DNA from: Physcomitrium patens
Lineage: Eukaryota; Streptophyta; Bryopsida; Funariales; Funariaceae
Assembly: GCF_000002425.4 (NCBI RefSeq)
Contig: NC_037270.1
Location: 10,883,935-10,947,934 of the forward strand
Length of the DNA stretch: 64,000 bases
Direction of reading: 5' to 3'
The notes beneath the pieces were generated by a model. The model saw only the letters and a list, made by a program, of their open reading frames with translations, had not been told where the DNA came from and did no database searches. Positions 1,325-46,695 of the stretch are shown piece by piece. Made by a program: the position numbers and the translations under genes. Numbering within the stretch: the first letter of the stretch is position 1; each line of letters begins with the position of its first letter.

Positions 1325-1495
1325 TTATGATATAAAAACGTTATATCTTGCCATCTATTTGAAAAAGAACATATTATTCTTTATAAACTTTATTTTGTTT
1401 TATTGTCTAGGAGGTTGTGACAATTGCAATATCTTGTTCGATAAATCCTCAAACAATAGTTCTTGAATTGAATTTTCCAGTTGTTGATTCTCCAT
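1325..1495 (-). pseudogene. A' copy 2: N-terminal remnant of ORF3
   Basis: On the minus strand this segment aligns base by base (with many transitions) to the first part of ORF3 of element A (29567-29923), starting at a conserved ATG (minus-strand start at 1495). It is cut at 1324/1325 by insertion of A' copy 1. It contains several stop codons. It matters mainly as evidence that ORF3 was present in the A' lineage too. Function unknown. Confidence 0.6.
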
Positions 1496-14417: not shown

Positions 14418-14770
14418 TGTCACAAATTTAGAATACTCACTCGAAATAAGAAACTCAAGAAGAATCGGCAAGAATTAGATTAATTAGATGAATATAAGAA
14501 CAACACTAGAGAGGTGAGCTAGAGCTCTAAGAAGTAAGTTGTTGAGACTGAGGATCTCCTCAATCTCAGCTCTTATATATACTACCAGTTAGGAAGCTTC
14601 TCAAGTAGCCTCCACAAACTAGGAAGCTTCTCAAGCGGCTTCTATGAATTAGGAAGCTTCTCAAATAACTTCCACAATCTATGAAGCTTTTCAAGCAACT
14701 TTCACAAACCACAAAGCTTCTCTAGAACCATCTAGAATCTTCTACAACTTCCTAGTGTATGTCCTTGACA
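14418..14770 (-). repeat. Element D left LTR (3' LTR)
   Basis: 353 bp, tgtcacaaat to ccttgaca on the plus strand. It matches 36031-36321; the length difference comes mainly from five versus three units of a 30-bp repeat. A TATA-like box (plus tcttatatatac, 14571-14582) lies just downstream of the repeat array in the minus sense, the expected U3 promoter layout. Confidence 0.9.
14591..14740 (-). promoter_or_regulatory. U3 tandem repeat: five 30-bp units, each with a gaagctt-type core
   Basis: Units start at 14591, 14621, 14651, 14681 and 14711, typified by aggaagcttctcaag. Most units contain the palindrome GAAGCTTC, which fits the pattern nGAAnnTTCn of plant heat-shock elements. The array lies upstream of the TATA-like box in the element's sense, so it is placed as an enhancer. 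That it responds to heat is inference only. Confidence 0.5.
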
Positions 14771-14877: not shown

Positions 14878-15174
14878 TTATTGTTCACGCTGCAAATAAT
14901 TCATTGGTCCTTGTAACCAATGATAGTGTCCTATGCCTTCGATTTTTGACCAAGCATGAACTTCCATGTCTTCATTGTGAAAATGTCCTGCAAACACTCC
15001 TTCGGGAAGATCACAGTAGGCAGGTTCTATCTCAAATACAATCACTAGCAACCTGTTACTAGGTATCTTCCATTGTCTTTATGGTATAGGCAATTCTTCA
15101 TCTCGGGGTCGTCTTTGTGAGATACTTGATTGAAAAGACATAATAGATATGGTATCTATCTCTTGGCTATCCAT
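14878..15174 (-). pseudogene. Element D ORF3: small conserved protein of unknown function
   Basis: A 98-codon frame on the minus strand between the chromodomain and the polypurine tract, starting at ATG 15174-15172 and ending TAA at 14880-14878, with one internal TAA after about 31 codons (probably CAA decayed). The C-terminal two thirds aligns with ORF3 of element A (29567-29923): shared residues are R-x-LVIV-x-E, then a WS pair, then GIGHY-x-WL-x-G and N-x-L. The alignment holds at the same genomic position in a clearly different family, so the frame is likely to have been a real gene. No signal peptide, membrane segment or zinc motif is visible. I do not recognise the family and assign no function. 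Confidence 0.7.
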
Positions 15175-15330: not shown

Positions 15331-17023
15331 TCATCGAAAGGGCTTAGGTTTCTGAGGATAGCATCGATGAAACTCCTGAATCTTTTGCGATGCATTGATA
15401 AGATTTTTTGCTAGTTCCCATGTGTGTTCATTGATATCATAGCCGCTCCAATGTACTAGGTACTCCAATTTCCTCCACTTACACCACAAATCTAGTACCT
15501 TTTCTACCTCATATTTCTCGTGGTTCTCAATTTCAATATTAGGTGGCGGATATTGCATTCTTCTAGGAAAAGATGATTCTCAATAAGGTTCCAACAAAGA
15601 AACATGAAAGACTAGGTGTACCTTCATAGCAGCCGATAATTCCAAACGATATGCTACTGGATTGATTTACTTTTGGATGATAAATGGTCCCAATCTTTGG
15701 TAGTCAAACTTATCACATGGCCACTTGATTTTGATATTCCATCAAAGCAGCCATACTTTATTTCCAATTTTGAAAGTAGGTGCCTGATTCCAAAATTTGT
15801 CTACGGATACCTTGTAAGCTTCTTGGACAGTTTGTAATTAAAGTTTCAATGTAGTTTGAAGCTTCGATAGTTGTTTCACAAATCCTTCAAGTGTTGGGTT
15901 GTTATTGGTTGACAGACTCAATAAATCAAGCTTTGGATGATACCCATAGTTAGAAAAGAATGATTTTTGTTGAGTCGATGCATAAAAGGTGTTGTTATAT
16001 GCAAACTCAGCTAACGATAGATATACAATCCAATCATCTTATTGATAGTTGATGCTGTATCATAAATACTGCTCTAAAGTTTGATTCATCCGTTCTATTT
16101 GGCCATCAATTTGAGGATGGAAAGCCAAAGAAAGCTTGATATCCACCTTCAATATTTCAAAGAGTGATCTCCAAAACTTTGATACGAATTAGGTTCCTCG
16201 ATCCGACATGATATCATCTAGTAAACCATGATATTGATACACACTATCAAAGAAGAGCCTTGCTGTGTCTTTGCTTGACGATGTTTTCTTGCAAAAGTCA
16301 AAGTGTGCCATCTTTGTAAGCCAATCTACCACAACAAAGATGTTGTCAAATGAATTTAATGGTGACAAGTCCATAATAAAGTTCATAGAAACTGAAGACC
16401 ATGGCTGATGTCGAATAGGTAATGGCTGAAGAAGACCATAAGGACGATGCCAAGGATTCTTGGATCTTGAACAAATGTTACAAAAGAAGTCAAAATCCTT
16501 TACATCCTTCCATATTTAGGGCCACCAAAAATCTTGAGAAATAAGTTTCAAGGTCTTATTGAATCCAAAATGTCTCGCAGCTGAAAAGTCGTGTCGAGAT
16601 TGGAAAACTCAGAGTCGTGCTGGTCTCTTTGGAATATACAACCGCTCTTCAAAGTATAAAAGATCTCCTTCTGCCTTGAACTTGTCATTATTTATACATT
16701 GCATGATATCGAGGGCTACAAAATCTCTAATAGTTGCAATAGGTACCTGGTTGAGGAAGTCAGCATCAATTGATACTATAGCAAAGCAAAGCCTGAATTG
16801 TTCTGACTTCAACAATGTTGTACATTGTTGATCAAACTCTACTTTTTTAACTTGTGGCACTAGATACAATCTTCTTGATAATGCATTGGATAGTCCTTGT
16901 TACTTCTGAGGCTGATAAGTAATAACAAAATCAAACTTAGAAAGCAACATATTCCATTGAGCTTGACAACGATTCAGAACCCGAGCCGACATGAAGTATT
17001 CCAAATTCTTGTAATCTGTGTAT
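15331..17023 (-). pseudogene. Element D pol: RNase H end, integrase, chromodomain
   Basis: The minus-strand pol frame ends with a well-kept chromodomain (15331-15558) that includes the aromatic-rich text 'LEYLVHWSGYDINEHTW'. Upstream are the integrase C-terminal part, the catalytic core (16189-16386, with 'FIMDLSP' around the first catalytic Asp and a tail reading SDRGT) and the N-terminal part (16609-16869). The RNase H segment runs to 17023, where family C solo LTR 4 breaks it between adjacent codons of the 'YTDYKNLEYF'-type block. Stops separate the pieces, mostly explicable by C-to-T change. Confidence 0.85.
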
Positions 17024-18743: not shown

Positions 18744-18748
18744 GCGGA

Positions 18749-19309
18749 TGTCACAGACATAATCATGTAAGCTAATAATTACATATACAAATAGGTAGAA
18801 GTAAGTAAAAGTAAGTAAAAGTAAGTTAATTCTATAGTATTTAATATGGAAGCTTCCTAGAAGCTTTATAGATACTGCTTTGACTTCATAGGTGTCTTTA
18901 ATTGACCTTTTGGATTAGAAACATGGTCAACAAGTTGGCCATGTGCCACACATGTTGTTAGCTTGAAGATCAAGCTAACTATGTAGCCCACACGTAGAAG
19001 AACTTGCCTTGTAAGTCAAGGCATGTGTCCTACAAAGTCAATACATATTGGAGGTCCTATAGAATGTCGCTACGTAGCCCTTAGTTAGATAATATATATA
19101 GAGACAAGAATGAAGGCTTCTTCACTCTTGTCAACTCCTTTCTTACTTCTAGTCTAGTTTCAAGGGTCTCTAGTTTTCTTGTCTTTTGGCAATAGCCATT
19201 CCAGTTTTTCTTTCAATATATATACTTGTTTATATATATTTTGTTACCTCTCTTTGAGTGAAGGTTCACTTATTTGAATTGTTTTTTCATCGAGTTCTTG
19301 TCCTTGACA
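18749..19309 (+). repeat. Element A 5' LTR
   Basis: 561 bp, TGTCACAG to CCTTGACA, with inverted terminal TGTCA/TGACA. A TATA-like box (aatatatata) is at 19091-19100. A GAAGCTTC/TAGAAGC palindromic cluster near 18850-18866 lies in U3. It is very similar to 30031-30611, which has an extra run of the 'aagtaggta' short repeat. Confidence 0.92.
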
Positions 19310-19329
19310 AATTGACAAGAATGCACCTA

Positions 19330-19521: not shown

Positions 19522-20529
19522 ATGGTAGATCTTGTTGAATTGAAGAGTGCAATGGCACAAATGCAAGAGCAATTGAGGGAGTTAATGCCTGTGATGCATC
19601 AACTCAATTTATGACCACAAGGAGCAACAAGATTGGCAGGAAGTGAAGATATAGAAATGGTTGGAGCTGCTTCAACATCTGCACCAAACCATGTCTTTTC
19701 TCCTATGGAAATACGCCCTTCAAATGTTAGAGAACCAAGAATTGCCCTACCCGAGAAGTTTCATGGTACTAGATCCAAGTTTCGAGGATTTATCAATCAA
19801 GTGCAACTTGTGATTGAACTTCAATCCCAAAGCTATCCAACTCTAAGATCGCAAGTTAGATTCATTGGTACACTTCTTTCAGGTTCAGCACTATCGTGGT
19901 TTTCATCTTTTCTTGAACGATGAGATCCAATATTGGATAATCTAGAGGCTTTTTTGGCGGAGTTTCGATCCATGTGTGGAGAACATGATGCAATTTGTGT
20001 TGCAACCAATAAGATCCGTATTTTATGACAAGGCAATCGATCTGTAATGTTATATACTTCACAATTTCAACAACTTGCAACTGATATCAAGTAGGATGAT
20101 GTTGCACTTATTAGCCAATTTCTCTATGGATTACAATATGAGGTAAAAAAATTAATGCTCAACTTACATGATCCTCAAACATTGAGTCAAGCAATTGACT
20201 TTGCTGTGAAGTGCGACAATCACCTTTTTGAATTCCGATCTGAAAACCGTACAAGTGGATCTCAATGTTACTATAATTCAATGGCAACACCAACATCTCT
20301 TCAACACATACATTCGGAAGTAGAGGATATGCAAATTGATGCAGTACGTTTCAAACCTCTTACTGAGCAAGAAAAGACTCGTCGTCGTCAAGAAGGATTA
20401 TGTTTATATTGTGGAGAACCAAAGCACACTGCTCAACATTGTCCAAAGAAACGACGAAATCACAAAATGAGGAGTATGGCTATGAAAGAAGACAATATGT
20501 CAAAAAACGAGTTTGTCCAGCTACAATAG
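19522..20529 (+). pseudogene. Element A gag (capsid-nucleocapsid), four internal stops
   Basis: One frame of about 335 codons from ATG 19522 to TAG 20527-20529. It is interrupted by TGA at 19612, 19921 and 20026 and TAG at 20092, all single-base decay of CGA or TGG. The capsid region contains 'GTRSKFRGFINQVQLVI' and 'GTLLSGSALSWF', typical of the Ty3/gypsy gag domain. A CCHC knuckle is at about 20401-20445, spaced CLYCGEPKHTAQHC. The terminal TAG occurs at the equivalent place in element D, so it is a true gag end. The N-terminus differs from that of A' copies, which have a longer, unrelated-looking leader. Gag would package RNA and form cytoplasmic particles. Confidence 0.85.
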
Positions 20530-20576
20530 GGACCGTGTGGCTGGAACCTTGCACAACATCTAGTAAAGGTCCTATT
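20502..20576 (+). promoter_or_regulatory. Candidate -1 ribosomal frameshift signal between gag and pol
   Basis: Slippery heptamer A AAA AAC at 20502-20508 is in the correct phase of the gag frame. A 7-nt spacer follows, then a 6-bp stem (20516-20521 with 20540-20545). The 18-nt loop contains aatagggacc (20525-20534), which can pair with ggtcctatt at 20568-20576 apart from one bulged G, allowing an H-type pseudoknot. Slipping -1 here enters the pol frame before the gag stop. The heptamer is also present in A' copy 2. In D the equivalent place reads GGAAAAT, which is not a canonical slippery site. Confidence 0.6.
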
Positions 20577-23500
20577 CTCTCCTCAGAGCCCTCTTCTTCT
20601 TTTACATTAAATGTTATTTTAGGACCTAAATATTACAAAGTCTGTGCCTTATTAGATTCAGGAGCCTCAACGTATTTTTTAGATGAAGAATTTACTAAAA
20701 GACATAGCATATCTTTAGTAAAGAAAACTAAACTTGTTCATGTAGAAGTCATAGATGGTCGTCCATTGTCTTTTGGAGATATTACTCACGAAACCCTTCC
20801 TATAGAAGTAATAATCAATGGTCATAATAGTTTTGTAGTATTTAATATCATTAGATCTCCCTCTAATCCAGTCATTTTAGGTTTATCGTGGTTAGAAAAA
20901 TACAACCTTCAAATAGATTAGACTTCCCAAACTCTTACTTTCTCTAAAAGTATAACTAACAATGTAGTTAATCAAGTAGAGAGTCATAAGTCCAGTTCAA
21001 TTAAACCCGTATTTATAGGTGCAAAAGCTTTCTTGCATGCTGCTATGAAAGAATCACCATATATTATTTATGCCACACCTGTTTGTACTGGTGGAAAGAC
21101 TTCAAGTGGCATTCCAAGCCAATATCAAGAATTTCAAGATGTATTCAAAAAAAAGAATGCGGATACACTATCAGAACATTGTCCCTATGATTGTTCAATC
21201 GATCTTCAAGAAGGAGCACAACTGCCATTTGGACCAATCTATAGTTTATCACAAAATGAGTTGACTGAACTCAAAGAGTATATTGAAGAAAATCTAGCCA
21301 AGAATTTCATACGCCATTCTAAATCTCCGGCAGGAGCTCCAATTCTATTTGTGAAGAAAAAAGATGGATCATTGCGGATGTGTGTTGATTATCAAGGACT
21401 CAACAAGATTATCATCAAGAACAGGTATCCAATACCTTTAATATCTGAACTTCTTGATCAGCTCAATCAAGCTAAGATCTATACAAAAATAGATCTTCAG
21501 AGAGCATACAGTCTAGTACTCATCAAAAAAAGAGATGAATGGAAGACTGCGTTTCGAACTAGGTATGGACATTTTGAATACAACGTCATGCCTTTTGGAC
21601 TTACAAATGCACCAGCAGCTTTTCAACATCTAATGAATGATGTTTTTCCAGAGTTTTTGGACGATTTCATGGTTTGTTAATTAGACAACATCTTGATCTA
21701 TTCTAAGAATCCAGAAGAACATGAACTTCATGTTCGTCGTGTATTACAAAAATTAAGAGATGTAGGACTCTATGCCAAGATAGAAAAGTGTATGTTCTAC
21801 ACTACTCAAGTCGATTTCTTAGGTTACATCATTTCAAATGATGGACTTATGATGGATCCTAAGAAAGTTTAAACTATTATAGACTGGGAGATCCCAAAAA
21901 CGGTAAGAGATGTCCAATGTTTTTTGGGATTTGCCAACTACTATTGGATCTTCATCAAAGACTTCTCTCGAGTTGCAGCTCCACTTACACGTTTGACTTG
22001 TAAAGACAAACTCCAATGGAATCAAGAAGCGGAAGTTGCTTTTGAATCTTTGAAGACAGCGTTTCTTTCTGTACCAATCTTGTATCGTGTTGATTTTTTC
22101 AAAGCATTCTTTATGGAAACAAATGCATCGGACTTTATTCTAGGTGCGGTTTTATCACAAATGGGAATAGATGACAAACTTCATCCAGTAGCCTTTCATT
22201 CAAGAAAATTCTCAGCAGCAGAAATCAATTATGAGATCCACGACAAAGAACTTCTTACAATTGTGGATTCTTTTCAAGAAAGGCGTCATTATCTACAAGG
22301 CACTTCCAGTCCAGTCACCATGTATATGGATCACAAGAACCTCGAATATTTTATGTCAGTACACGTATTAAATCATTGCCAAGCTCGTTGGAGCATGTCT
22401 TTATCAAGATTTGAGTTCATCATCACTTATCGATCAGGAAAACAACAAGGTTTGTCCGATGCCTTGTCTAGACGTTCTTATCTTGCACCAAAAGAAGGAG
22501 ATGCAGCTTTTGAGCAACAAAGAATGGTTCTCTTGAAGCCAGAGCAATTTCATCTTTGAGCAATAAAATCAACATTGACTGTTGATTTAACTTTTCTTAA
22601 GCAAGTCGAGTTGAGTATGTCTTCAGACCCTCTTGTTCATGATATCAAGAATAATTCTTCTAAATCTCATGATCCCTCTAAATTTGAATTCAAGAACAAC
22701 CTATTCTATTTCGAAGGATGCCTATATGTTCCAGAAGGAGAAGCACGTTTACGTGTTCTTCAAGCTCATCACGACTTCCCAGTAGTAGGATATTTTGGAT
22801 ATAATAAGACTTTAGAGCTGATATCTAGAGATTTTTGGTGGCCTCAAATGTGGAAGGCAGTTAAAGATTTTGTACAATCATGTGATGTTTGCTCAAGATC
22901 AAAAACTCCTCGTCATCGATCTTTTGGACTTCTTCAGCTATTACCCATTCCAAAACAACCATGGTCTTCTGTTTCTATGGACTTCATCACGGATCTTCCA
23001 ATCTCAGGTTCTTATGACTCTATATTCGTGATAATAGATTGTTTTACTAAGATGGCACATTTTGTACCATGTACAAAATCTATCACAAGTGAAGAAACAG
23101 CTAAGCTCTTTCTTGACAATATCTATCGCTATCATGGATTACCCAAGGATATTATATCAGATAGACGAACTCAATTTGTATCAAGATTTTGGCGGACTCT
23201 TTTCAAGATTCTTAAAGTGGATATAAAACTATCTTCGACATTCCATCCTCAAACTGATCGACAAACGGAGCGTGTTAATCAAGTTTTGGAACAATATTTA
23301 AGATGTACCATTAATTACCAACAAGATGATTGGACAACTCTTTTGCTATTGGCAGAGTTTGCTTACAATAATACGGTACATTCTTCTACAAAACAAACAC
23401 CTTTCTTTGCTAATTATGGTTATCATCCACGACTTGATACTTTTGACTTTTCAAAAGTTGATAATCCTGCGGTGAAAGATTTGGCAATTCATTTATCAAA

Positions 23501-23885
23501 GCTACATGCAACGATGAAGGCGTAATTAAAAGAGGCTCAAGAAAAACAAAAGGACAATGCTGATGTCTATCGAAAGGAACAACCATCATTCATCTTGGGT
23601 GATAAGGTATGGCTACTTTGTCACAATATCAAGACCACTCGTCCTTGTGATAAATTGGACTATCAAAGGTTGGGACCATTTTCTATTTCTGCACAAATCA
23701 ATCCAGTTGCATATCGTTTACATCTACCGGAGTCAATGAAAATCCATCCAATATTCTATGTGTCTCTTCTTGAACCATACAAGACAGTGGACATACCAAG
23801 AAGACGACAAGCTCCTCCTCCTCCTATAGAAGTAGACAATAATAAAGAGTTTGAAGTAGAAGAAGTCTTAGATTCAAGGCGGCAC
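20509..23885 (+). pseudogene. Element A pol (PR-RT-RNaseH-IN-start of chromodomain), five stops
   Basis: A single frame, -1 relative to gag, with stops at 20919 (TAG), 21678 (TAA), 21870 (TAA), 22557 (TGA) and 23523 (TAA) and no frameshift. Domains: protease with LLDSGAS at about 20654; RT about 21190-21900 with '[12 protein letters not shown]'; its catalytic box reads stop-L-D-N instead of Y-L-D-D, so the second Asp is lost. RNase H about 22060-22550, with one catalytic-type Asp changed in 'ETNAS'. Integrase about 22575-23790; its zinc region has GYFG where GHFG is usual, and the core keeps MDFITDLP. The frame enters the chromodomain and is cut at 23885 by the family C element. Confidence 0.9.
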
Positions 23886-25581
23886 TGTCGTATTACGTGT
23901 TGTCTTGTTCGGGAATACACTGGTATCTGGCTGTGGAAGGTATAGTTGTTTTTACAAATAACAAAGAAATCCTAATAGATTTTATCCATGTATGAAGTAT
24001 ATAATTGAAATATCAATTTCCAAGTATTTAAAAACACTCCTCATAGTCATTTTAACCATACAATATTCCAATTGCTTTATTTCTTTTATAATTAAGTTGT
24101 TTTTGTTTTTCTTAACAAGCCCTAATACTAGCCAGTGAGCTTTGACAAGCTGTAACTTTTGATCCAACCGTCCACTTAGTGTGAAATTTTGCATCTAAAT
24201 ACCAGTATAAGCCTTCTACATGCTCAAAAAATTTCAGTCCAATCCAACTTACAGATTGCAAGAAAACGCCCAAAAACCGCACTGATGACACTCGGCCGCA
24301 ACCTTGAATTTTGATGTAGAAACTCCAGAAGTGATTTCTCCTTTGTCAACCGTTAATTCCAGCTCAAAATTGAATAGCCGCTTGATCTCCAAATCTTCTA
24401 TTACCAAGCCAAAATTTACGTCGATCCAACCAGTAGATCTTCAGATATCACAGAAATCCTATTCAACCCTAGACTGCCAACTTTCGACAACCCTTTGTAC
24501 TAAAACCCAGATATCTCTTGATTGCATTGTTAGATTAACACAAATTTTTGTATACACTTAGCACACCCAACCATCCAAAAAATACCAAATTTTGATCCAT
24601 AGATGCTACACGACTTGCACAAACCGATTGAGAATGCGAACCATCAATGTTTTATATAAAATCCGAAACACCAAAATAAACACTGACTTTGAGCAGCGAT
24701 TGCTCTCCCCTCACAAATCCTAATGAAACCAACGTAGTGACCTTGAAAAGAGCTTGAAGCTAGCTCTTCGATCCAAAAAACCTCTAATGAAACCAACCTA
24801 GTGACCTTGAAAAGAGCTTGAAGCTAGCTCTTCGATCCAAAAACCCGATCTGAAAAAAAACCCCCACTGAAAAAACCCCCCCCCCCCTTCATTTCTTAAC
24901 CTTTCTCCCCTTTAACCCTAATTCTCCCCTCTTTCAAACCCTATCCTCTGAATTTCTTTAATCTTTCATCTTGGATCCGGAATTGGCTCTCGCCATCAGA
25001 GCTTTCTCCTCCGTTTTACCTTTAAGAGATCCTATTACCGAAAACAACGTTCCTTGAAATGGCACAAAGAACAGGACAGCCTGAAACAGAATCGAAATCC
25101 CGCAATCGGGACTACATTGAGTCGCTCGACCAATTCAGGTCTCATATTGGATAAGAGTCCAGTAGTAAGACCCGGATGTTCCCGAAATTGGATCAATTTG
25201 GTCCTTCGTGTCAGATTGGTTGAGGCACGTAGTAAGACCTGGATTTTCCCGTAATTAGACTATATTGGGTTGCCCGACTAATTCAGGTCTCATATTGGGT
25301 AAGAGGACCCGGATTGGATTCTTGAAATTGGATCCAATTGGCTCTTCGAACCAGGCTCACCCGTCGTGTGAATTGGTCCTTTTCCTTCCTGTTGACTCCC
25401 ATTATTGGAATCGAATAGAATATTTCAGTATGCCTCGGCTGATTGTAACGGGGTGACTGAACCTAGTCTCTCAGTATTTGCACTGGAATTGGTCGTTGCT
25501 CCCAATATTCGAGATAACTGAACATTAATAAAAATCCTCTTCCTTTATATTTTCATAGTATACTCGTGTTACAATACGACA
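23886..25581 (-). repeat. Family C element left LTR (3' LTR in its own sense)
   Basis: 1696 bp, tgtcgtattacg to aatacgaca, with a 9-bp perfect terminal inverted repeat (TGTCGTATT/AATACGACA). Holds a near-exact internal tandem pair of an approximately 62-bp block ending 'gagcttgaagctagctcttcg' style near 24.72-24.84 kb. Short plus-strand frames in it are also present in the other LTR but have no recognisable product. Confidence 0.92.
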
Positions 25582-25823
25582 TCGATCCCCTCTGAACCTG
25601 CACATCCTCCGGTATGTGCCAAATTCAGTACACCATTATTCTTTATCCAATACCAAAAATCCATGTATCGATCTTGTACAAGTAAATTGGAAACATCCAA
25701 CTTTGTACATGACCAAACCATTGGCGAGGTACAAATTTTGAAATGGAAAGATTTAATTGAAACTTCTTCTATATGGCCACATACATCTTGCTTGCATTTT
25801 TTTTCTTGTTCCTTTGATTCCAT
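25569..25823 (-). pseudogene. Possible C-terminal extension of family C gag in a second frame
   Basis: An 84-codon minus-strand frame overlaps the end of the main gag frame and reaches the polypurine tract and LTR edge. It includes 'LLVQDRYMDFWYWIKNNG', which looks more protein-like than chance. It may be the original C-terminus reached through an indel, or chance. I see no homolog in the window to decide. Confidence 0.3.
25582..25600 (-). promoter_or_regulatory. Family C polypurine tract
   Basis: The minus strand reads tcagaggggatcga immediately before the 3' LTR. A short purine run in the position required for plus-strand priming. Confidence 0.7.
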
Positions 25824-27333
25824 GCTTGATTTAAGACGTCCATATAATCTTTAAATCCATTGCCCATGTCTTTATATTTGAAGATTTTTAGATTTTCAAC
25901 CTTTGAATTCCACACTTCAAGATGAATCTTTTTCTTATCAAAATCCAATTGTGCCCCCAATACATGTGCATTATCCATATAACCTTGATCTTGGTCCAAA
26001 AGATTAGTACTCACAATTGATTTGATTAAAGCCATTGATTTAGTACCTTTACCTTTGATTCCATAATCTTCTTTTGCCACATTATCTTGTGAAATATCTA
26101 TCATTTCTTCTTGAATGTATCCTTATAAAACATCATTCATTTCTTCTTGAATGCATCCTTGTGAAACATCATAACCTTGTGTTATCTCAATATGTTGTAT
26201 TACTTCATAATATTGAAAAATTTCATAGCCTTGTGAAACCTCATGTTCTTGAAAAATCTTGCAACTTTCACCATAATCTTTTTTACCACCATGAGATGTT
26301 CCATCCAAATTGCCATCATCCACTTGCATAAACATATTCAATGTAGAATAGCTATAATTTTCATCCTTATTGTCATTAATTTCTAAATCCTTGAGTTCCA
26401 TATTGCTTTCAATTTTTTTGATATTCTGACCTTCCATAGTAATAATTTGATCAAAGTCTTTGTTCTTTCCTTCACCATCCTTGATAAAAGATCCACTTTC
26501 TTTCATTTGCAAAAAATTGGCTCCTCCTTCGAAGTCCTCCAGTTGCTGTTCCATTTCTCTTTTTTCAAGATTAATCCCTTGTATTGATAAAGATGATATA
26601 GAAGCCAAAGTAGAAGATTTCTTAGACCATACTCCAACTCCTTTAGCTTGTGCTCTTTGTTGCTTTGCTAAAAGAATCGTTGCTTCTTTCAACTCTTCCC
26701 AATTATTAGTACAACCACTCTCCGTAGACTCATCTGCAAGAAGTATAAAAAGTTTGTCTCCCATGGCATCATCAAGACCATTTAAAAATAATTCTATTTT
26801 TATAGCACCCAATGACTGTCTCTCTGAGGATGACAGTTGATAAAACCTCTTTTCAAATTATTCAAGAATTCATAAAGATCCATATGCATGCCTGATTGTA
26901 ATTCTATCCAATCCAAAAACTGTCGCTTAGTAATCTTATCCTCATTTGCATCAATAAATTCTTTCTTCAAAAGTTCTTGAAATTTTGACCATGTCTCCAC
27001 ACCCCTTTCAAGTAATCTCTTCACCTTTCTATGAATCCCAGGTTCAGTAGCCAAATAAAAGCTTGAAATCATCTTTGCCTCAATGATTTGGCATGTCTCC
27101 ATCTCACATGTATAAACTTGTAAAAACTTAGTGATGTTGCATCCGTTAAACCTCCAAAATTTGTTGAAAATTCCTTGTAATGCCTTTGTGATATCCCTTT
27201 CAATTGCTTGTATCTTTTGTTGTTCTTCCATAAATATACAAAAAGCCTCAAAAAACTCTTTAACATTTGGTCCATCCAAAGTATTCAACCTATCCAAAGA
27301 CTTCATTGAAATATCTTCCATTTTCTTCCACAA
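25769..27333 (-). pseudogene. Family C gag-like gene (one frameshift, one stop)
   Basis: The minus-strand frame starts at 27333 and runs to 26800. It continues in another frame from about 26830 to 26123, then, after one TAA (probably CAA decayed), in the same frame to 25769. In total it is about 520 codons. The N-terminal part resembles retrotransposon gag: a helical region with 'KFQELLKKEFIDAN' and 'ITKRQFLDWIELQSG', then 'KIELFLNGLDDAMGDK'. The C-terminal half is acidic and repetitive, with several degenerate repeats of the type S-Q-G-x-x-I/E. No CCHC knuckle is visible. The overlap at 26800-26812 could be a recent indel or a programmed shift. The product would form particles; pol is absent. 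Confidence 0.75.
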
Positions 27334-27562
27334 TGTTAAAAAAATATCCCTGGAAATGCTCCAATAAATAACTTATGATACCTCAAAATGCCCCAAGATG
27401 TCTATAAGCCATAATATACTCCATAATAATCCAAATATCACCATTCCTTTTCAAAATATCCTCCAAAGCTCCAAGTCTTCCAAAAACTCTAAAATCAACC
27501 TTGTCATCTTGCACCATCAATCCAAATAACCACATACAAAATCCAATACTTTCCACCCCAAA

Positions 27563-27582
27563 CTTTCACGTCGGGTTCACCA
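27563..27582 (-). promoter_or_regulatory. Family C primer binding site
   Basis: The minus strand reads TGGTGAACCCGACGTGA starting 4 nt after the 5' LTR edge. Its complement ends in CCA as a tRNA 3' end must. It is not the initiator-Met type seen in A and D; I cannot name the tRNA with confidence. Confidence 0.7.
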
Positions 27583-27586
27583 CTTA

Positions 27587-29333
27587 TGTCGTATTACGTG
27601 TTGTCTTGTTCGGGAATACATTGGATATCTGGCTGTGGAAGGTATAGTTATTTTTTGCAAATAACAAAGAAACCTTAATAGATTTTATCCATGTATGAAG
27701 TATATAATTGAAATATCAATTTCCAAGTATTTAAAAACACTCCTCATAGTCATTTTAACTATACAATATTCCAATTGCTTTATTTCTTTTATAATTAAGT
27801 TGTTTTTGTTTTTCTTAACAAGCCCTAATACTAGCCAGTGAGCTTTGACAAGCTGTAACTTTTGATCCAACCGTCCACTTAGTGTGAAATTTTGCATCCA
27901 AATACCAGTATAAGCCTTCTATATGCTCAAAAAATTTCAGTCCAATCCAACTTACAGATTGCAAGAAAACGCCCAAAAACCGCACTGATGACACTCGGCC
28001 GCAACCTTGAATTTTGATGTAGAAACTCCAGAAGTGATTTCTCCTTTGTCAACCGTTAACTCCAGCTCAAAATTGAATAGCCGCTTGATCTCCAAATCTT
28101 CTATTACCAAGCCAAAATTTACGTCGATCCAACCAGTAGATCTTCAGATATCACAGAAATCCTATTCAACCCTAGACTGCCAACTTTCGACAACCCTTTG
28201 TACTAAAACCCAGATATCTCTTGATTGCATTGTTAGATTAACACAAATTTTTGTATACACTTAGCACACCCAACTATCCAAAAAATACCAAATTTTGATC
28301 CATAGATGCTACACGAATTGCACAAACCGATTGAGAATGCGAACCATCAATGTTTTATATAAAATCCGAAACACCAAAATAAACACTGACTTTGAGCAGC
28401 GATTGCTCTCCCCTCACAAATCCTAATGAAACCAACGTAGTGACCTTGAAAAGAGCTTGAAGTTAGCTCTTCGATCCAAAAAACCTCTAATGAAACCAAC
28501 CTAGTGACCTTGAAAAGAGCTTGAAGCTAGCTCTTCGATCCAAAAACCCGATCTGAAAAAAAAACCCCACTGAAAAAAACCCCCTCCTCATTTCTTAACC
28601 TTCCTACCCTTTAACCCTAATTCTCCCCTCTTTCAAATCCTACCCTCTGAATTTCTTTAATCTTTCGTCTTGGATACGGAATTGGCTCTCCCTGTCTTTA
28701 ATCCGGAATTGGCTCCTTCGTCTTGGATCTAGAATTGGCTCTCGCCATCAGAGCTTTCTCCTCCGTTTTACCTTTAAGAGATCCTTTTACCGAAAACAAC
28801 GTTTCTTGAAACGACATAGAGAACAGGACAGCCTGAAACAGAATCGAAACCCCGCAATCGGGACTACATTGAGTCGCCCGACCAATTCAGGTCTCATATT
28901 GGATAAGAGTCCAATAGTAAGACCCGGATGTTCCCAAAATTGGATCAATTTGGTCCTTCGTGTCAGATTGGTTGAGGCACGTAGTAAGACCTAGATTTTC
29001 CCATAATTAGACTACATTGGGTTGCCCGACTAATTCAGGTCTCATATTGGATAAGAGGACCCGGATTGGCTTCTTGAAATTGGATCCAATTGGCTCTTCG
29101 AACCAGGCTCATCCGTCGTGTGAATTGGTCCTTTTCCTTCCTGTTGACTCCCGTTATTGGAATCGAATGGAACATTTCAGTATGCCTCGGCTGACTGTAA
29201 CGGGATGACTGAACCTAGCCTCTCAGTATTTGCACTGGAATTGATCGTTGCTCCCAATATTCGAGGTAACTGAACATTAATAAAAATCCTCTTCCTTTAT
29301 ATTTTCACAGTATACTCGTGTTACAATACGACA
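27587..29333 (-). repeat. Family C element right LTR (5' LTR in its own sense)
   Basis: 1747 bp, same termini as the left LTR. It differs by a few substitutions and by an extra copy of a roughly 50-bp segment near 28.69-28.74 kb ('ccggaattggctc' block repeated). The near identity marks a recent insertion compared with all other LTR pairs in the window. Confidence 0.92.
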
Positions 29334-29337: not shown

Positions 29338-29475
29338 CGAAATAAATTAGAATATCTTGTCCATTGGCACGGATATGGTATTAGTGAACGCACATGGGAG
29401 CCAATAAAGAATCTTGTAAATGCAACAAAGGCGGTGGAGGCTTTTCATCGACGACATCCATCAAAATCAAGATGA
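29338..29475 (+). pseudogene. Element A pol: end of chromodomain
   Basis: Continues the pol frame after the family C insertion and ends at TGA 29473-29475. It contains 'KLEYLVHWHGYGISERTWE', matching the element D chromodomain at 15331-15558. The two halves, 20509-23885 and this one, join in frame when the insertion and one GCGC are removed. Confidence 0.88.
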
Positions 29476-29566: not shown

Positions 29567-29923
29567 ATGGAGAACCAACAACTAGCGGATTCGACTCAAG
29601 AGCCTTCATTTGCTAACCTGCCGGACGAGACATTACGATTGTCACAACCTTCAAGATGATGCAATCGAGATGAAGATCTTCAAGAATGACATGTTCTTCC
29701 TCGAATAGATGGCGAGATACAATGCGTTTGGTATCACGATTTGGGAAGGGACTCCCGATGTTTGGTAATTGTGCTAGAGGTAGGAACAACTCCTGATGGT
29801 GTTCCAAATATTCTATTCAAAGGAAGTTACGAAGGCCTCAATAATGATCAAATAACTGGGTGGTCTTCCCGCCCTGGTATAGGACACTACCGATGGTTGA
29901 GAGGCCTTATCAATCATCTTTAA
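29567..29923 (+). pseudogene. Element A ORF3: small conserved protein of unknown function
   Basis: A 118-codon frame downstream of pol, ATG 29567 to TAA 29921-29923, with two in-frame TGA (29657 and 29687), both explicable as CGA decay. From about residue 55 it aligns with ORF3 of element D: R-x-LVIV-x-E, a central F-x-G, a WS pair, then GIGHY-x-WL-x-G and N-x-L. The N-terminal half is polar and poorly conserved. Collinear remnants occur in A' copy 3 (39221-39580) and copy 2 (1325-1495). It sits between the chromodomain and the polypurine tract, a place where most chromoviruses have nothing. No transmembrane segment is seen, so an envelope role is unlikely. Function unknown. Confidence 0.75.
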
Positions 29924-30016
29924 AGAGAACAAAGATCAAAGTATGTGGTGAATACAATTCGTCACATCATAGATTTCCTCAACATATGATGACCGCTCCT
30001 TGTCAAACTCATCCCT

Positions 30017-30030
30017 AGAAGAGGGGGTAA
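30017..30030 (+). promoter_or_regulatory. Element A polypurine tract
   Basis: agaagagggggtaa directly before the 3' LTR. Confidence 0.9.
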
Positions 30031-30611
30031 TGTCACGGACATAATCATGTAAGCTAATAATTACATATACAAATAGGTAGAAGTAAGTAAAAGTAGGTAG
30101 AAATAAGTAAAAGTAGGTAAAAGTAAGTTAATTCTATAGTATTTAATATGGAAGCTTCTTAGAAGCTTTATAGACGCAGCTTTGACTTTATAGGTATCTT
30201 TAATTGATCTTTTGGATTAGAAACGTGGTCAACAAGTTGGCCATGTGCCACACATATTGTTACCTTGAAGATCAAGCTAATTATGTAGCCCACACGTAGA
30301 AGAACTTGCCTTATAAGTCAAGGCATGTGTCCTACAAAGTCAATACATATTGGAGGTCCTATAGAATGTCACCACGTAGCCCCTAGTTAGATAATATATA
30401 TAGAGACAAGAATGAAGGCTTCTTCACTCTTGTCAACTCCTTTCTTACTTCTAGTCTAGTTTCAAGGATCTCTAGTTTTCTTGTCTTTTGACAATAGCCA
30501 TTCCAATTTCTCTTTCAATATATATACTTATTTATATATATTTTGTTACCTCTCTTTGAGTGAAGGTTCACTTGTTTGAATTATTTTTTCATCGAGTTCT
30601 TGTCCTTGATA
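30031..30611 (+). repeat. Element A 3' LTR
   Basis: 581 bp, TGTCACGG to CCTTGATA; the terminal CA has become TA. About 20 bp longer than the 5' LTR because of extra 'aagtaggtaaa' short repeats at 30080-30125. Followed by TSD GTGGA. Confidence 0.92.
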
Positions 30612-30616
30612 GTGGA

Positions 30617-36030: not shown

Positions 36031-36321
36031 TGACAAATTTTCATGAATTTAGAATATTGACTAAAAACAAGAAGCTCAAGAAGAATCGATAAGAACTAGA
36101 TTAATCAAATGAATACAAGAACAACACTAGAGAGGTGAGCTAGAGCTCTTAGAGGTGTATTGTTGAGACTGAGGATCCCCTCAATCTCAGCTCTTATATA
36201 TACTACCAGCTAGGAAGCTTCTCAAGCCGCTTCTATGAATTAGGAAGCTTCTCAAGTAGCTTTCACAAACTACAAAGCTTCTCTAGAATCTTCTACAAGT
36301 TCCTAGTGTATATCCTTGATA
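36031..36321 (-). repeat. Element D right LTR (5' LTR)
   Basis: 291 bp, matching 14418-14770. Three units of the 30-bp gaagcttc repeat (36211-36300) instead of five. Followed by TSD TTTGG. Confidence 0.9.
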
Positions 36322-36326
36322 TTTGG

Positions 36327-36950: not shown

Positions 36951-37081
36951 AATGGACTTCTTAAGAGTAACTTGTATTAGCCTCAATACAATATCAATGT
37001 AATCTTAACAACTGATCTTAAACTAGATGATGGCTATCAATATGCTATGAAAGAATAGTCTAATACTTATTCTAATATTAA

Positions 37082-37653
37082 TGAAATGAGATTGAATTCT
37101 CTTAAAGATCTAAAATTCTTTTAGTCTATAGCAACATAAATTCCATCACAAAGTAGAAAAAAATGAACTAGAATAAAATTAAGGAAAAATAAAAAAAATA
37201 GAACATGAAAGATAAAATAAAGCTAAAGAAAATAAAATAAAAGAGAACAAAAAATTAAAATCAAAATTTACTAAAATAAAGGAATTAAATCCATATCTGA
37301 CCAAATGTCCAAATAGCCTTAGTCAATCCTATTTATACTTTGTCCAATCATCTTGAAACTTTTTAGAATATTTTTAATGATACATCTTATATAAATAACT
37401 ATCTTAAGTCTTTTTTAGAATGTTCTATTGTAGGCCCTATCTAAATAACCACCTTAAACTCTTTTAGAATGTTCTATGGTGGATCTTATCAAGCTAATTG
37501 CTCAAAGCTTTTTTAGAATGTTCCATAGTAGATCCTACATAAACCATTAACCTACCTCCAATTCTAGAAACTTCTATAAGCTTCTCAAATATGACTCCAA
37601 TTATCTATCTTTATATGTCAACAATAAAAATATCTTATTTATACTCCATTATA
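37082..37653 (-). repeat. Element B right LTR (5' LTR)
   Basis: 572 bp, tgaaatgaga to ccattata, matching 5541-6011. Includes three to four units of a degenerate tandem repeat with 'tagaatgttc' cores at about 37.37-37.54 kb. Followed by TSD GTATT (37654-37658). Confidence 0.87.
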
Positions 37654-37658
37654 GTATT

Positions 37659-38040
37659 GAAATAGATGTAATCTTAAATAGAACTTGACTTGTTGTAAAA
37701 ATCTTCAAATTTTTTATCTTCTTTCATCAAACTTCTCGGATATACTAATCTTTGTCTCCCTTTTGCCTCTAGAAGCAAGACTTTTTGGATTTGGTTGTAA
37801 GGTTGATGTACTTGCTTCCTTCAACTATACAACTTTGTAGTATAGACTTTAGATTTCTTTCATAGGTGTAGGAATAGTATTTCTATGGTTGACATTGGTC
37901 ATGTATGAAATTTCTATCCTAAGAATATTGGCAAGTTTGTGAAGATCTATAATAATTACAAATCTATTATCACTTCCACCAAGTGTAGCATCTATGATTT
38001 TTTCTTCTATTTCAAATAACTTAATAAATCCATAAGTCAA
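37659..38040 (-). pseudogene. A' copy 2: gag N-terminal part
   Basis: Continues A' copy 2 gag on the far side of element B. The best frame (37849-38040) reads '...IIDATLGGSDNRFVIII' and then '...LRIEISYMTN'. The same leader occurs in copies 1, 3 and 4 but not in element A, whose gag begins differently. Confidence 0.72.
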
Positions 38041-38252
38041 ATTAGGGGAGGATAATCTATAATTTCTAATGTTAAATAAAAATTTCTACAAAAAAAAGTG
38101 ATATGATCTATTTAAGAAAAAAAAAAGGTTTAAAAAAAAAATAGATTAAAGCTAGATAGTCTACAATCTTTAAACACAACAATAAAAGTGAGATAATCAA
38201 CTTACTTCTAAAATACAAAACAAAAAGAATACATTCTTCACTCTTATTTAAC

Positions 38253-38782
38253 TATTAAGTATATGAATCAAAATAAGAAGAAACTTAAAACACTATTATA
38301 TGATTAAAGAAGAATAAGTATTGACTTCAAAAATATTATAGTATTAAGATTAAAATGACTATAACCAAAGATAAGAAGAATATAGAAACTTGAAACTACA
38401 CTAAGAACAAAAAAGACATTGATAAGAATAAAAAAGGCTTCACTCTTGCCTCCATATATACTATCTAACTAAAAGCTATGTGGTGACATTTTATAAATCC
38501 TCCAACATGTGTCCAATTTATAAGATACATATCTAACTTATAAGACAAGTTTCTTATGTGTGTGCCACCTAGTTAACTTTTTTGACAAGCTATTAATATA
38601 TTCGTCATGTCGCTAATTTCTTGGCCAAGTTTTTAACCTATCAATCACCTACAATCATGTTTAAAGTCAAATATGTATCTATAAAACTTCTAAAAAGTCT
38701 TGCTATAAAATATCATTAAATCTACATATATTTATCTTTTATTTAATATTTTTTTATCTATATAAATATCTAAGTCCGTGAT
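38253..38782 (-). repeat. A' copy 2: 5' LTR
   Basis: About 530 bp of A'-type LTR in minus orientation ending gtccgtgata. It abuts a second, partial A' LTR. Confidence 0.75.
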
Positions 38783-39111
38783 ACTATACTATCTAATTAA
38801 AAGCTATGTAGCAACATTTTATAAGACCTCTAATACATGTTTAATTTCCAAGACACATGTCTTAACTTGCAAGATAAGTTTCTTACGTGTGTGCCACATT
38901 GTTATCTTGTACCATAAGCTACCAATATGTACAACACATGACTAATTTGTTGGCTAAACTTTAATCTATTAATCACCTATAATCAAGTTTAAAGATAAAA
39001 TTATGTCTATGAAGCTTCTAAAAAGCTTTTCTATAAGATATTATCAAATTAATCTACTTTTATTTATTCATGATATTTAGATAATTATTGAAGTAAATAT
39101 ATATCTTTGTG
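38783..39111 (-). repeat. A' copy 3: part of 3' LTR
   Basis: Starts in the middle of the LTR (ctatactatctaa) and ends at ctttgtgata. The missing part should lie left of copy 2, outside the window. This indicates copy 2 inserted into the LTR of copy 3. Confidence 0.7.
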
Positions 39112-39220
39112 ATATTACCTACTTTTTTGAAAACAAGTTCCACAAAGAATGATAATTATATGTTGAAGAAGTTTAAGATCCAACAAATTATATTTGCTAC
39201 ATATTTTGAACTTTTTTTCC

Positions 39221-39580
39221 TTTGAAGATAGTTGATAGGTCCTTTCAACCACTAATAATGTCTTATTCTAAGATAGAAAAATTACCTTGTTATTTGACCA
39301 TTTTTGAGGGCTTTGTAACTTCATTCAAATGAAACAAATTTGGAACACCATTAAGACTCATTCCTATCTTCAATAAAATCACCAAATATCAACAATCTCT
39401 TTTAAGGTTGTAATATCAAATGCATTGTAACTTACCATTTATTCAAAGTAAAATATGTCATTCTTGAAGGTCTTCAACTCAATTATGTTATCTGGAAGGG
39501 TGTAATAATTACAATGTTTCATCTGATAAGTCAATAAATAATGGCTCTTGACTTGAATTTTTTGGCTATTGGTTCTTCAT
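39221..39580 (-). pseudogene. A' copy 3: ORF3 remnant
   Basis: Collinear with ORF3 of element A along its whole length, from a conserved ATG (minus start 39580) to the C-terminus. Despite heavy decay the hallmark still reads R-H-Y-stop-W-L-K-G-P-I-N-Y near 39.22-39.26 kb, close to the element D form. Stop codons at several positions. Confidence 0.65.
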
Positions 39581-39689
39581 CTCTTAGGTGCCACAAATAC
39601 TTAGAAATTACAAATAAGGATGGAAGATCAAATGCAAACTTTCTTGAATTGCAGTTCTTTTATAGCAAAGATATGCTATTCTTTATCTT

Positions 39690-41395
39690 GGTTTTAATAG
39701 ATATTGTCAATACAAAATATCATCCTTCTTTGCTACATTTATAAGATTCTTTATTGGATTCCATGTATATTCACTAATATCATATTTGTACTAATGAATA
39801 AAATATTTTAACCTATTTCTACACCACCTTATGTGAAAGACTTCTTTGACCTAAAATTCTTAGTTATTATTCACTTCTATGACAGAAGATATCATTTATT
39901 ATCTTTTTGGTATATTTATTATCTTATATGATTAAAAAAGAGATACATGGAATATAAGATGGATTTTTATAGACTCTAATAGATATAATCTATAAGCAAT
40001 TAGATTAATTTATTCACATATAGAAAATGATCAAATTCTACAATAATCCAACTTATCACAAAGGTAAATAGTCTTAATATTACAACAAAGTAATCATACT
40101 TTATTGCTAATATGGAATTGAAATTTTTTCTTGTAATAAGCATCTATACTGATTTTTTTTTGTTCTAGAGTGTCTTTTAATCCTACCTAAATTATTACAT
40201 ATAGCTATGACAAATAATTTTCTAAATCTTTAATCATAGTATTATCAACTTTTAAAAAGTCAAAAATATCAAATCATGGATGATAATCATAATTAGCAAA
40301 AAAATATATATTATATTATTATTAGTAAATTTTATTAATAATAAAAGAATTATCTAATCATCTTATTGAAAATTCATGGTACACCTCAAATATTATTCTA
40401 GGACTTGATTTATTTGTTCTATTTGATTATTAGTTTAAGGATGGAAGACCAAAGATAGTTTTATGTCTACTTTTAAAATCTTGAAAAGAATTCTCAAAAA
40501 TCTTGATACAAAATGTATCTCTCTATCTAATATAATATTCTTTGGTAATCCATAATAGTAATGGATATTATCAAAAAAAAGGTTAATTGTTACTTTAGCT
40601 AAAATATATTTTTTATATAATACAAAATATTCTATCTTGGAAAATTAATCTACTATTATAAATATAGAGTCAAAAAAACTTAAAATTGAAAGATTGGTAA
40701 TAAAGTCCATAGAAACAAAAGACCATAGTTATTCTAAAATAAGTAATAATTAAAAACGTCTATAAAATTGATGACCAAGATTTTTTGATCTTCAATAAAC
40801 TTCACGTGATTATATAAAGTCTTTAATTACATTTCATATTAGAAGCTACTAAAAATCTCTAGATATCAATTTCAAAGTTTTATTGTATCTTAAATGTCTA
40901 GTTGTTGGAGTCAAAACAAGCTTAAAGAATGCATAATTGTGCTTCTTCTTTTTAAACATATAATTGTCCTTTAAAATAGAATAGATTATAAAAATTTTCT
41001 ATTTTGAATTAAAACTTAGAAGTATTTTGAGATTTAAGAGAATTATTCTTAATATCATGAATAAGAGGATTAGAAGACATATGTGATTAAAATTGTTTGA
41101 AAAAGATTGAATCAAAAATTAATGTTGATTTTATTACTTGAAGATGGAAATGCTTTGACTTCAAGAGAATTATATTTTATTAATTGAAAGCCACATCTCC
41201 TTCTTTTGATACAAGATAAGAATGTCTAAAAAGAACATCTAAAAAACCTTGATGTTTTTGAGATTGATAAGAGATCTTGAAATCAAATCTTTATAAAGAC
41301 ATGCTCCAACAAACTTGGCAACAATTCCAAACACATATTGACATAAAATATTTGAGGTTCCTATAATTTATATCCATTATGATTGGATTAAAAGT
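39690..41395 (-). pseudogene. A' copy 3 pol: chromodomain, integrase, start of RNase H end
   Basis: Minus-strand blocks: chromodomain about 39.70-39.93 kb, integrase about 39.93-40.98 kb, RNase H C-terminal part to 41395. Identified by collinearity with A' copies 2 and 4 and element A; no long frame remains. Cut at 41396-41399 (ACAT) by a family C LTR. Confidence 0.72.
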
Positions 41396-41399
41396 ACAT

Positions 41400-43087: not shown

Positions 43088-43091
43088 ACGT

Positions 43092-45960: not shown

Positions 45961-46162
45961 AATCCACAATTTCTAATACCAAATGAAAATTTCTACAAAG
46001 AGAGATACTTAATTTTTTTAAATAAAAAATTATTATTAGGGAATTAAAATATTAAATAAAAGGTTGGTAGTCTACAACCCTAAAAATGTAACAATACAAG
46101 TGGAGTAGTCTACTCACTTCTTAAAACAAGACAAGAACAATGAATTAGAATTCTTATCAAAC

Positions 46163-46695
46163 TATCAAGGACATGAATCTTAAAAAATTAATTGATTATT
46201 ACACTCTATTATTATTTAAAAAGGCTAAAAAATTATTCAAAGATGGTATGATATTAATTAAAAATAGCTATTGTTAAAGATAAGAAGATTAGAAAATCTT
46301 GAAATAAGACTAAGGACTAGAAAGGCATTAATAAGAGTGAAGAAGGTTTCACTTTTGCCTTGATATATACTAACTAACTAGAAGTTAAATGGCAAGGTTC
46401 AATAGGACCTCCAATACATGTTTAATTTGCAAGTCACATGTTTTAACTTGAAAGGCAAATTTTCTATACATGCACTACATTATTAGCTTATTCTACAAGC
46501 TACCAATATGTGCAACACGTGGCTAACTTATTGGCCAAGTTTCTAACCTACTGATCATCTACACACATGTATAAAGGTAATGTTGCATGTATGAAGCTTC
46601 TAAAAAGTTTCTCTATAAGATATTATCAAATTAATCTACTTTAATTTATTCATAATATCTAGGTAATTATTGAAATAAATATATTTATTTATGAT
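46163..46695 (-). repeat. A' copy 3: 5' LTR
   Basis: About 533 bp, tatcaaggac to atttatgata, of A' LTR in minus orientation. It marks the right border of the nested block. Confidence 0.75.

What the first reader, a model, noticed from the sequence alone, without database searches (positions are those of the whole stretch)
29567..29923. A conserved third gene (ORF3) downstream of pol in two different chromovirus families
Seen: element A has a 118-codon frame after the chromodomain and before the polypurine tract. Element D has a 98-codon frame in the same place (14878-15174, minus). They share R-x-LVIV-x-E, a WS pair, GIGHY-x-WL-x-G and N-x-L with similar spacing. Remnants with the same hallmark occur in A' copies 3 and 2. 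The only damage in A and D is single-base stops (two TGA; one TAA). Known: chromoviruses normally end with the chromodomain, and extra genes elsewhere in plant LTR elements are unrelated in position or sequence as far as I recall. Inference: a previously undescribed accessory protein kept by selection across families. Element B has no room for it, so it is lineage-specific.
Basis: partly seen in the sequence, partly recalled or inferred. Interest (0 to 1): 0.88.

Follow-up and report, generated by a model that had tools for sequence, protein, structure and literature searches.

The report
Hidden third gene in moss retrotransposons
Moss jumping genes of the chromovirus kind carry a small extra protein-coding gene after their polymerase gene; it is conserved between distantly related families and two moss genera, looks built to work in the cell nucleus, and matches no known protein family in the searches made here.

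Summary
The frame at 29567 in element A runs to 29989 (140 codons; premature stops at codons 31, 41, 119). That of element D runs 15174-14821, minus (117 codons; stops at 32, 99). A and D share about 43% amino-acid identity over 73 codons, with DNA similarity no better than shuffles. Differences pile up at third codon positions (pN/pS 0.47, 95% 0.32-0.68). The four chromodomains found in the window are all followed by ORF3 or a remnant. Homologous protein clusters number 27, 42 and 755 (E up to 10) in three searches; named ones come from Physcomitrium patens and Ceratodon purpureus, most are unnamed. Of 128 listed, 84 keep the family's C-terminus. A bipartite basic cluster like a nuclear-import signal occurs in 39 of 46 selected non-A proteins, 0 of 13 A-type. 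No convincing Pfam, NCBIfam, PHROG or PDB relative was found. It is best read as a sense accessory gene of moss Tcn1-like chromoviruses, kept by selection, encoding a small nuclear, non-enzymatic protein; its role is inference. Nine paper searches showed no description; the key 2008 moss paper was not read.

The parts
29567..29989 (+).
   Evidence: homologues of 140 aa
14821..15174 (-). ORF3 of element D, 117 codons plus terminator; premature stops at codons 32 and 99
   Evidence: homologues of 115-117 aa
39159..39580 (-). ORF3 remnant in an A-like (A') element, whole length, frameshift near 39335 and many stops
1394..1495 (-). ORF3 remnant in another A' element, first 34 codons only
18749..19309 (+). 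5' LTR of element A (92.6% identical to the 3' LTR)
   Evidence: preceded by GCGGA at 18744-18748
30031..30611 (+). 3' LTR of element A; purine-rich tract just upstream (about 30017-30029); followed by GTGGA at 30612-30616 (probable 5-bp target duplication with one change)
19633..23885 (+). Element A gag, protease, RT, RNase H and integrase, in pieces interrupted by damage, up to the first part of the chromodomain
   Evidence: DUF4939 and Ty3_capsid below their cut-offs; aspartyl protease; RVT_1; RT_RNaseH; Integrase_H2C2; rve
23886..29333 (.). another LTR element inserted into A's chromodomain (LTRs about 23886-25584 and 27587-29333, 93.7% identical)
29344..29475 (+). second part of A's chromodomain (Pfam Chromo E 3.6e-11) and the end of pol; 91-bp spacer to ORF3, which is in a different frame
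15343..15516 (-). chromodomain of element D (Pfam Chromo E 1.1e-11); pol stop 15333-15331, 156-bp spacer to ORF3
14425..14770 (-). 3' LTR of element D; matching 5' LTR part at 36046-36322 (84% over the first 253 bases). A is inserted inside D

Best explanation
ORF3 is a genuine third gene, in the sense direction between pol and the 3' LTR, of moss Tcn1-like chromoviruses. It encodes a small accessory protein of about 115-150 residues. Shown: homologous frames without stops exist in many protein clusters; the sequence is conserved as protein and not as DNA between families; and it is not simply a tail of pol, because its frame relative to pol differs between A and D. Inferred: the protein enters the nucleus through its Arg-rich N-terminal tail and acts without enzymatic activity through a conserved C-terminal core of strands and a helix that probably self-associates or binds a partner. 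It would serve the element in the nucleus, either handling element RNA or DNA or countering host silencing in the heterochromatin in which such elements live. Expression from a spliced or otherwise separate mRNA is a guess (not tested).
For: Gene: A-D protein similarity far above shuffles with none at DNA level; 35, 21 and 43 of 73 aligned codons differ at positions 1, 2 and 3; pN/pS 0.47 (95% 0.32-0.68), Fisher p 0.0003 for position 2 against 3 (71 codons). Homologous clusters: 27, 42, 755, among them Ceratodon purpureus clusters of 21, 3 and 138 members. Of the 128 listed clusters 84 end in the family C-terminus by a pattern that missed at least two further ones, 93 begin like the family, and 62 of the 83 that have 104 residues or more keep the C-terminus; in the 59 rows that I had picked as full length all end within the last three alignment columns and 18 columns are 93% or more identical. 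Own gene: pol-ORF3 frame offset differs between A and D; four of four chromodomains found are followed by it. Nuclear tail: bipartite basic pattern in 39 of 46 selected non-A proteins, 64 of all 128, against 25 of 2950 shuffles; short basic cluster in 42 of 46 non-A, 11 of 13 A-type, 87 of 128. No membrane span: maximum 19-residue hydropathy 1.39 in 15 proteins. Strands followed by a C-terminal helix in both models.
Against: The nuclear role rests on a motif that 0 of 13 A-type proteins have in its bipartite form. The structure models are poor (mean pLDDT 55 and 51), so the fold and the absence of an active site are not established. No expression, localisation or interaction data were seen. 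Selection was measured on one pair of damaged copies only, and ORF3 is less conserved than pol (pN/pS 0.47 against 0.31). A against its A' relative shows only a weak codon pattern (47, 32 and 44 differences at the three positions). The protein database holds predicted proteins, so it over-represents open frames; 44 of the 128 listed clusters did not match the C-terminus pattern, being shorter, fused or otherwise ended.
Confidence: 0.5

Rival explanations
1. ORF3 is a chance or relict open frame: the similarity of A and D is common descent of non-coding sequence, without any selected protein.
For: All four copies in the window are damaged; the A-A' comparison has little codon pattern.
Against: DNA similarity between A and D is no better than shuffles while protein similarity is far above them; pN/pS 0.47 with upper bound 0.68; shared C-terminus in 84 of 128 listed clusters; uninterrupted clusters in two moss genera.
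Confidence: 0.04
2. A narrower form of the best explanation: ORF3 is a counter-silencing factor, in the manner of anti-silencing proteins that I recall from plant DNA transposons (from no call). It enters the nucleus and releases the element from heterochromatic repression.
For: Nuclear-type basic tail; RLG1, the dominant P. patens chromodomain gypsy element, sits in heterochromatic islands yet is transcribed in protonema (PMC7466625, passages).
Against: No family match of any kind; no functional data; that A belongs to RLG1 was not tested.
Confidence: 0.2
3. Another narrower form: ORF3 is an RNA-binding regulator comparable in role to retroviral Rev (recalled). The Arg-rich tail binds element RNA, the core multimerises, and the complex promotes export or packaging of unspliced RNA.
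For: Small size, 3' position, Arg-rich tail next to a conserved core with a C-terminal helix. The N-terminal 45 residues have pI 11 or more in 7 of 12 non-A proteins tested, including 3 of 3 D-type, while the C-terminal 70 are acidic.
Against: No spliced transcript was examined. The N-terminal 45 residues are acidic in 3 of 3 A-type and near neutral or acidic in 5 of 12 non-A proteins. No export motif was tested for.
Confidence: 0.15
4. ORF3 is an env-like gene, as proposed for Athila, SIRE and Bagy2.
For: Same position and orientation as env-like frames (review PMC7264820, first of three parts read).
Against: No hydrophobic segment likely to span a membrane (maximum 19-residue mean 1.39 in the 15 proteins tested); only 115-150 residues.
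Confidence: 0.02
5. ORF3 is a degenerate second chromodomain or chromoshadow-like domain, duplicated from pol, that reads chromatin.
For: Predicted order of strands then a helix; a W-L-x-G-P-x-N-x-L stretch at the last strand recalls the chromodomain W-E-P-x-x-N-L (my reading).
Against: Profile comparison with the window's chromodomains gives probability 0.1 (only two sequences on that side); Pfam Chromo hit by 0 of 63 members.
Confidence: 0.08

Closest known systems
Sense additional ORFs between pol and the 3' LTR of plant LTR retrotransposons (aORF-3S; env-like frames of Athila, SIRE, Bagy2)
   Same: Position and orientation; function unknown or debated (PMC7264820, first of three parts read)
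   Different: Those elements are Athila, copia (SIRE) and Bagy2, some with membrane spans. ORF3 is 115-150 aa, has no span in the 15 tested, and keeps one core across families and two moss genera. The review's main text has no occurrence of chromovirus, moss, Physcomitr, Tcn1, chromodomain or Tekay
Extra ORFs (eORF) catalogued by Neumann et al. 2019
   Same: Additional ORFs in plant Ty3/gypsy elements
   Different: That survey counted eORFs of at least 250 codons only, so ORF3 would have been missed; it found eORFs heterogeneous within lineages (PMC6317226, passages)
Antisense TRP28 / Grande ORFs of Retand-lineage elements
   Same: Between pol and 3' LTR; nuclear localisation reported for Grande; DNA binding proposed for TRP28 (PMC11963269, passages)
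   Different: Antisense, non-chromovirus, flowering plants; no sequence comparison with ORF3 was made
AlkB (2-ODD) ORF of Phalaenopsis gypsy elements
   Same: An accessory protein fixed in a plant gypsy lineage, suggested to relate to host surveillance (PMC9289625, abstract)
   Different: Recognisable enzyme domain; ORF3 matches no known domain in the searches made
Selaginella SM1-Galahad downstream ORFs
   Same: Short ORFs downstream of pol in a gypsy element of a seedless plant (PMC3350952, passages)
   Different: Its ORF3 contains the chromodomain; the moss ORF3 lies after the chromodomain and does not match Pfam Chromo

Membership tests
Ty3/gypsy chromovirus | RT-RNase H-integrase order with a C-terminal chromodomain in pol | tested here: met
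   A: RVT_1, RT_RNaseH, Integrase_H2C2, rve, Chromo; D: zinc knuckle, RVT_1, Chromo, integrase by 59% aa identity to A
Tcn1-clade chromovirus | group I chromodomain with aromatic cage | tested here: met
   D: Y2, W23 and Y26 of the chromodomain at the spacing of the HP1 cage (spacing recalled); matches HP1 and CDYL chains in the PDB. In A only the W and the second Y are in the piece read
Tcn1-clade chromovirus | self-priming site after the 5' LTR instead of a tRNA-complementary site | tested here: inconclusive
   A: 9 bases from 19312, three bases after the LTR, are complementary to LTR bases from 19126; Neumann et al. asked for at least 10; no control was run and D was not tested by script
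Tcn1-clade chromovirus | RT/IN phylogeny placing it with Tcn1 | not tested
   no reference RT set was fetched
Sense aORF between pol and 3' LTR (aORF-3S) | same strand as pol, between pol stop and polypurine tract/3' LTR | tested here: met
   A 29567-29989 between pol stop 29473-29475 and LTR 30031; D 15174-14821 between pol stop 15333-15331 and LTR 14770
Sense aORF between pol and 3' LTR (aORF-3S) | kept in most copies of the family | tested here: inconclusive
   4 of 4 chromodomains found in the window are followed by it or a remnant; the genome-wide fraction could not be tested
env-like gene | membrane-spanning segment | tested here: not met
   maximum 19-residue hydropathy 1.39 in 15 of the 128 listed proteins
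Chromodomain / chromoshadow domain | sequence-profile similarity to chromodomains | tested here: inconclusive
   hhalign probability 0.1 against the window's two chromodomain pieces; 0 of 63 members hit Pfam Chromo; models of low confidence

The most novel reading that the evidence does not exclude
ORF3 founds a new family of retrotransposon accessory proteins, with no counterpart in cells, that moss Tcn1-like chromoviruses have carried at least since the Ceratodon and Physcomitrium lineages split (unless it moved between them later). It works in the nucleus to release these elements from heterochromatic silencing or to direct their RNA, which would help explain how one gypsy family came to dominate the P. 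patens genome. If so, it is among the most numerous protein-coding sequences in a model plant and has gone undescribed because surveys look for frames of 250 codons or more.
Probability: 0.3. Interest if true: 0.82.

Novelty: new variant of a known kind. Interest (0 to 1): 0.66.

Why it matters
Chromoviruses are usually described as gag-pol elements ending in the chromodomain. A conserved third gene in them, without recognisable relatives and shared by two moss genera, means these abundant elements encode something beyond replication enzymes. RLG1, a chromodomain gypsy family, makes up 47% of the class I space of P. patens and is transcribed in unstressed protonema (PMC7466625, passages). If A belongs to it (not tested), ORF3 could be tested directly in a plant with efficient gene targeting. 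It also shows a blind spot in repeat surveys that use long-ORF cut-offs.

Tried and rejected
Own-genome search: the genome search (where own) returned 'machine busy or cannot be reached' in all 12 attempts, so no genomic copies and no internal-branch dN/dS. DNA of relatives: the viral contigs and genome-contig scans with alignment A1 found no relatives.

Chromodomain duplication, env-like protein and C-terminal tail of pol (frame offset differs) were considered and set aside. A-A' codon comparison: 47, 32 and 44 differences at positions 1, 2 and 3, dominated by G-to-A and C-to-T (78 of 123), not informative. Splicing of an ORF3 mRNA was only considered by eye. Rows dropped: I picked 63 of the 128 listed clusters for A2/A3, mostly those that looked full length, so counts on A3 lean towards intact ends; 59 of those 63 (104 aa or longer) went into the tree and column counts; one search repeats the main counts on all 128. 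Codons holding a stop were left out of pN/pS (71 of 73 kept). The tree's bootstrap had not settled.

Full report
What was claimed.

What is there. Element A is a Ty3/gypsy element with LTRs at 18749-19309 and 30031-30611 (92.6% identical), probable 5-bp target duplications GCGGA and GTGGA, and pieces of gag, protease, RT, RNase H, integrase and chromodomain. Its chromodomain is split by another LTR element (23886-29333). Element D lies on the minus strand around A: its 3' part is at 14.4-18.7 kb, and its RT and zinc knuckle are at 30.6-32.2 kb. A is inserted into D (inference from this order and the target duplication). Both frames lie between the end of pol and the 3' LTR, in the sense direction, 91 and 156 bp after the pol stop.

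Extent of the frames. The A frame runs 140 codons to 29989 with premature stops at codons 31, 41 and 119; the D frame runs 117 codons to 14821 with premature stops at 32 and 99. Remnants occur at 39580-39159 (-) and 1495-1394 (-). A search with D's chromodomain finds four chromodomains in the window, D's included; all four are followed by ORF3 or a remnant. The pol-like stretch at 58.7-62.9 kb has no chromodomain hit and could not be scored.

More than chance. A against D aligned as protein scores 148; the maximum of 500 codon shuffles is 45. The DNA alignment scores 26 against a maximum of 27 in 300 shuffles. The other eight forward frame pairs score 22-35; two of nine reverse-strand pairs score 55 and 79 and the rest 20-27. 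Of 73 aligned codons 35, 21 and 43 differ at positions 1, 2 and 3. Nei-Gojobori counts on 71 codons give pN/pS 0.47 (bootstrap 0.32-0.68) with saturated synonymous change; the same pair gives 0.31 for RT/RH (431 codons), 0.31 for integrase (374) and 0.33 for the chromodomain piece (43). ORF3 is thus constrained, less tightly than pol. This is one pair of damaged copies; the fair test, many copies with internal branches, was not possible because the own-genome search did not complete (12 attempts).

Relatives. Protein searches returned 27 clusters for A, 42 for D and 755 at E up to 10 for the combined alignment, of which the best 120 were listed, all below 1e-25. The window is therefore most likely P. 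patens or a near relative (inference). A tree of 59 selected proteins splits A-type (13) from the others on a branch with 100/100 support, and shows further branches among the others, though the bootstrap had not settled. A Ceratodon and a P. patens D-type protein are 90% identical over 115 residues; D-type and A-type are 43-44%. The high Ceratodon-Physcomitrium identity may reflect constraint or horizontal transfer, and I cannot tell which.

Anatomy of the protein. Of all 128 listed clusters, 84 match a pattern for the family C-terminus (it missed at least P0085 and P0106), 93 a pattern for the N-terminus, and 62 of the 83 of 104 residues or more keep the C-terminus; the others are shorter, fused or end differently. 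In the 59 rows that I picked as full length, all end within the last three alignment columns and 18 positions are 93% or more identical, among them R21, E26, F61, W75, S76, G82, H83, Y84, W86, L87, G89, I110 and F113 of P0075. The N-terminal part is variable with an Arg-rich patch: a bipartite basic pattern is present in 39 of 46 non-A proteins, 0 of 13 A-type, 64 of all 128, and 25 of 2950 shuffles; a short basic cluster in 42 of 46, 11 of 13 and 87 of 128. No membrane-spanning segment was found in 15 proteins tested. Both models show strands followed by a C-terminal helix, at low confidence. No convincing family or structure match was found.

Own gene, not a pol tail. In A, ORF3 is out of frame with pol. 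In D it is in the same frame but separated by four stops. Spacers differ in length. The start codon in both has G at -3 and G at +4 (sequence), compatible with translation from its own mRNA. How that mRNA arises is not known; a spliced message is my guess.

How it may work. I commit to a nuclear, non-enzymatic accessory protein that serves the element's RNA or its chromatin state; the gene part is well supported and the role is inference. Anti-silencing and RNA-regulator versions are given as rivals, though they are narrower forms of the same reading. The fit with biology is that a chromodomain gypsy family, RLG1, dominates heterochromatic islands in P. patens and is transcribed in protonema (PMC7466625, passages). 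That A is RLG1 was not tested.

Comparison with the literature. Sense ORFs between pol and the 3' LTR are known in other plant elements (PMC7264820, first of three parts read). That review has no occurrence of chromovirus, moss or Tcn1. Neumann et al. counted only extra ORFs of 250 codons or more (PMC6317226, passages), so this one would be missed. The Tcn1 papers found (PMC2864245, PMC3350952; passages) describe two ORFs for SM-Tcn1, and an 'additional ORF' appears in a figure legend without further detail in the passages seen. The word ORF does not occur in the main text of the P. patens element paper (PMC7466625). Nine searches showed no description of this gene in titles, abstract starts or the passages opened. 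The earlier survey of moss chromoviruses (2008, recalled) and the 2018 P. patens genome paper were not read, and no supplementary files were seen, so priority is not established.

Verdict. It is a new variant of a known kind: an accessory gene in a retrotransposon lineage usually described without one, with a protein family that has no known relatives in the searches made here.

Noticed in passing
window 39159-39580 and other A' regions (1-6000, 37000-47000, 58000-64000; about 21-29% GC): A' copies are very AT-rich; from A to A', 78 of 123 ORF3 differences are G-to-A or C-to-T, as expected of long methylation-driven decay.
   Followed up: partly
P0022 and P0026 (P. patens predicted proteins): Both hold A-type ORF3 sequence followed by D-type ORF3 sequence: gene-model artefacts, nested insertions or recombinants between element families.
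   Followed up: no
P0013: An ORF3 protein sits in a 549-bp contig of a Kitasatospora herbaricolor assembly, probably moss DNA in a bacterial record.
   Followed up: no
window 23886-29333: LTR element with about 1.7-kb LTRs inserted in A's chromodomain; the longest frames of its 2-kb interior are minus-strand, 177 and 229 aa, without a Pfam match at 0.01, so it looks non-autonomous.
   Followed up: partly
window 19312-19320 and 19126-19134: Nine bases just after A's 5' LTR are complementary to a stretch inside the LTR, a hint of Tf1/Tcn1-type self-priming.
   Followed up: partly
window 47945-50162 and 50753-52970: A 2.2-kb stretch is repeated at 99.6% identity on either side of a run of N (586 N in the window), possibly an assembly duplication at a gap.
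   Followed up: no
window 7599-8265 and 9180-9930: Self-similar repeats in opposite orientation with strong GC skew (+0.57 in 7001-8000, -0.75 in 9001-10000).
   Followed up: no
window 29657-29689 and the A' copy at 39580-39335: Premature stops at codons 31 and 41 of ORF3 occur in both A and the A' copy: shared ancestry or repeated decay at the same sites.
   Followed up: no
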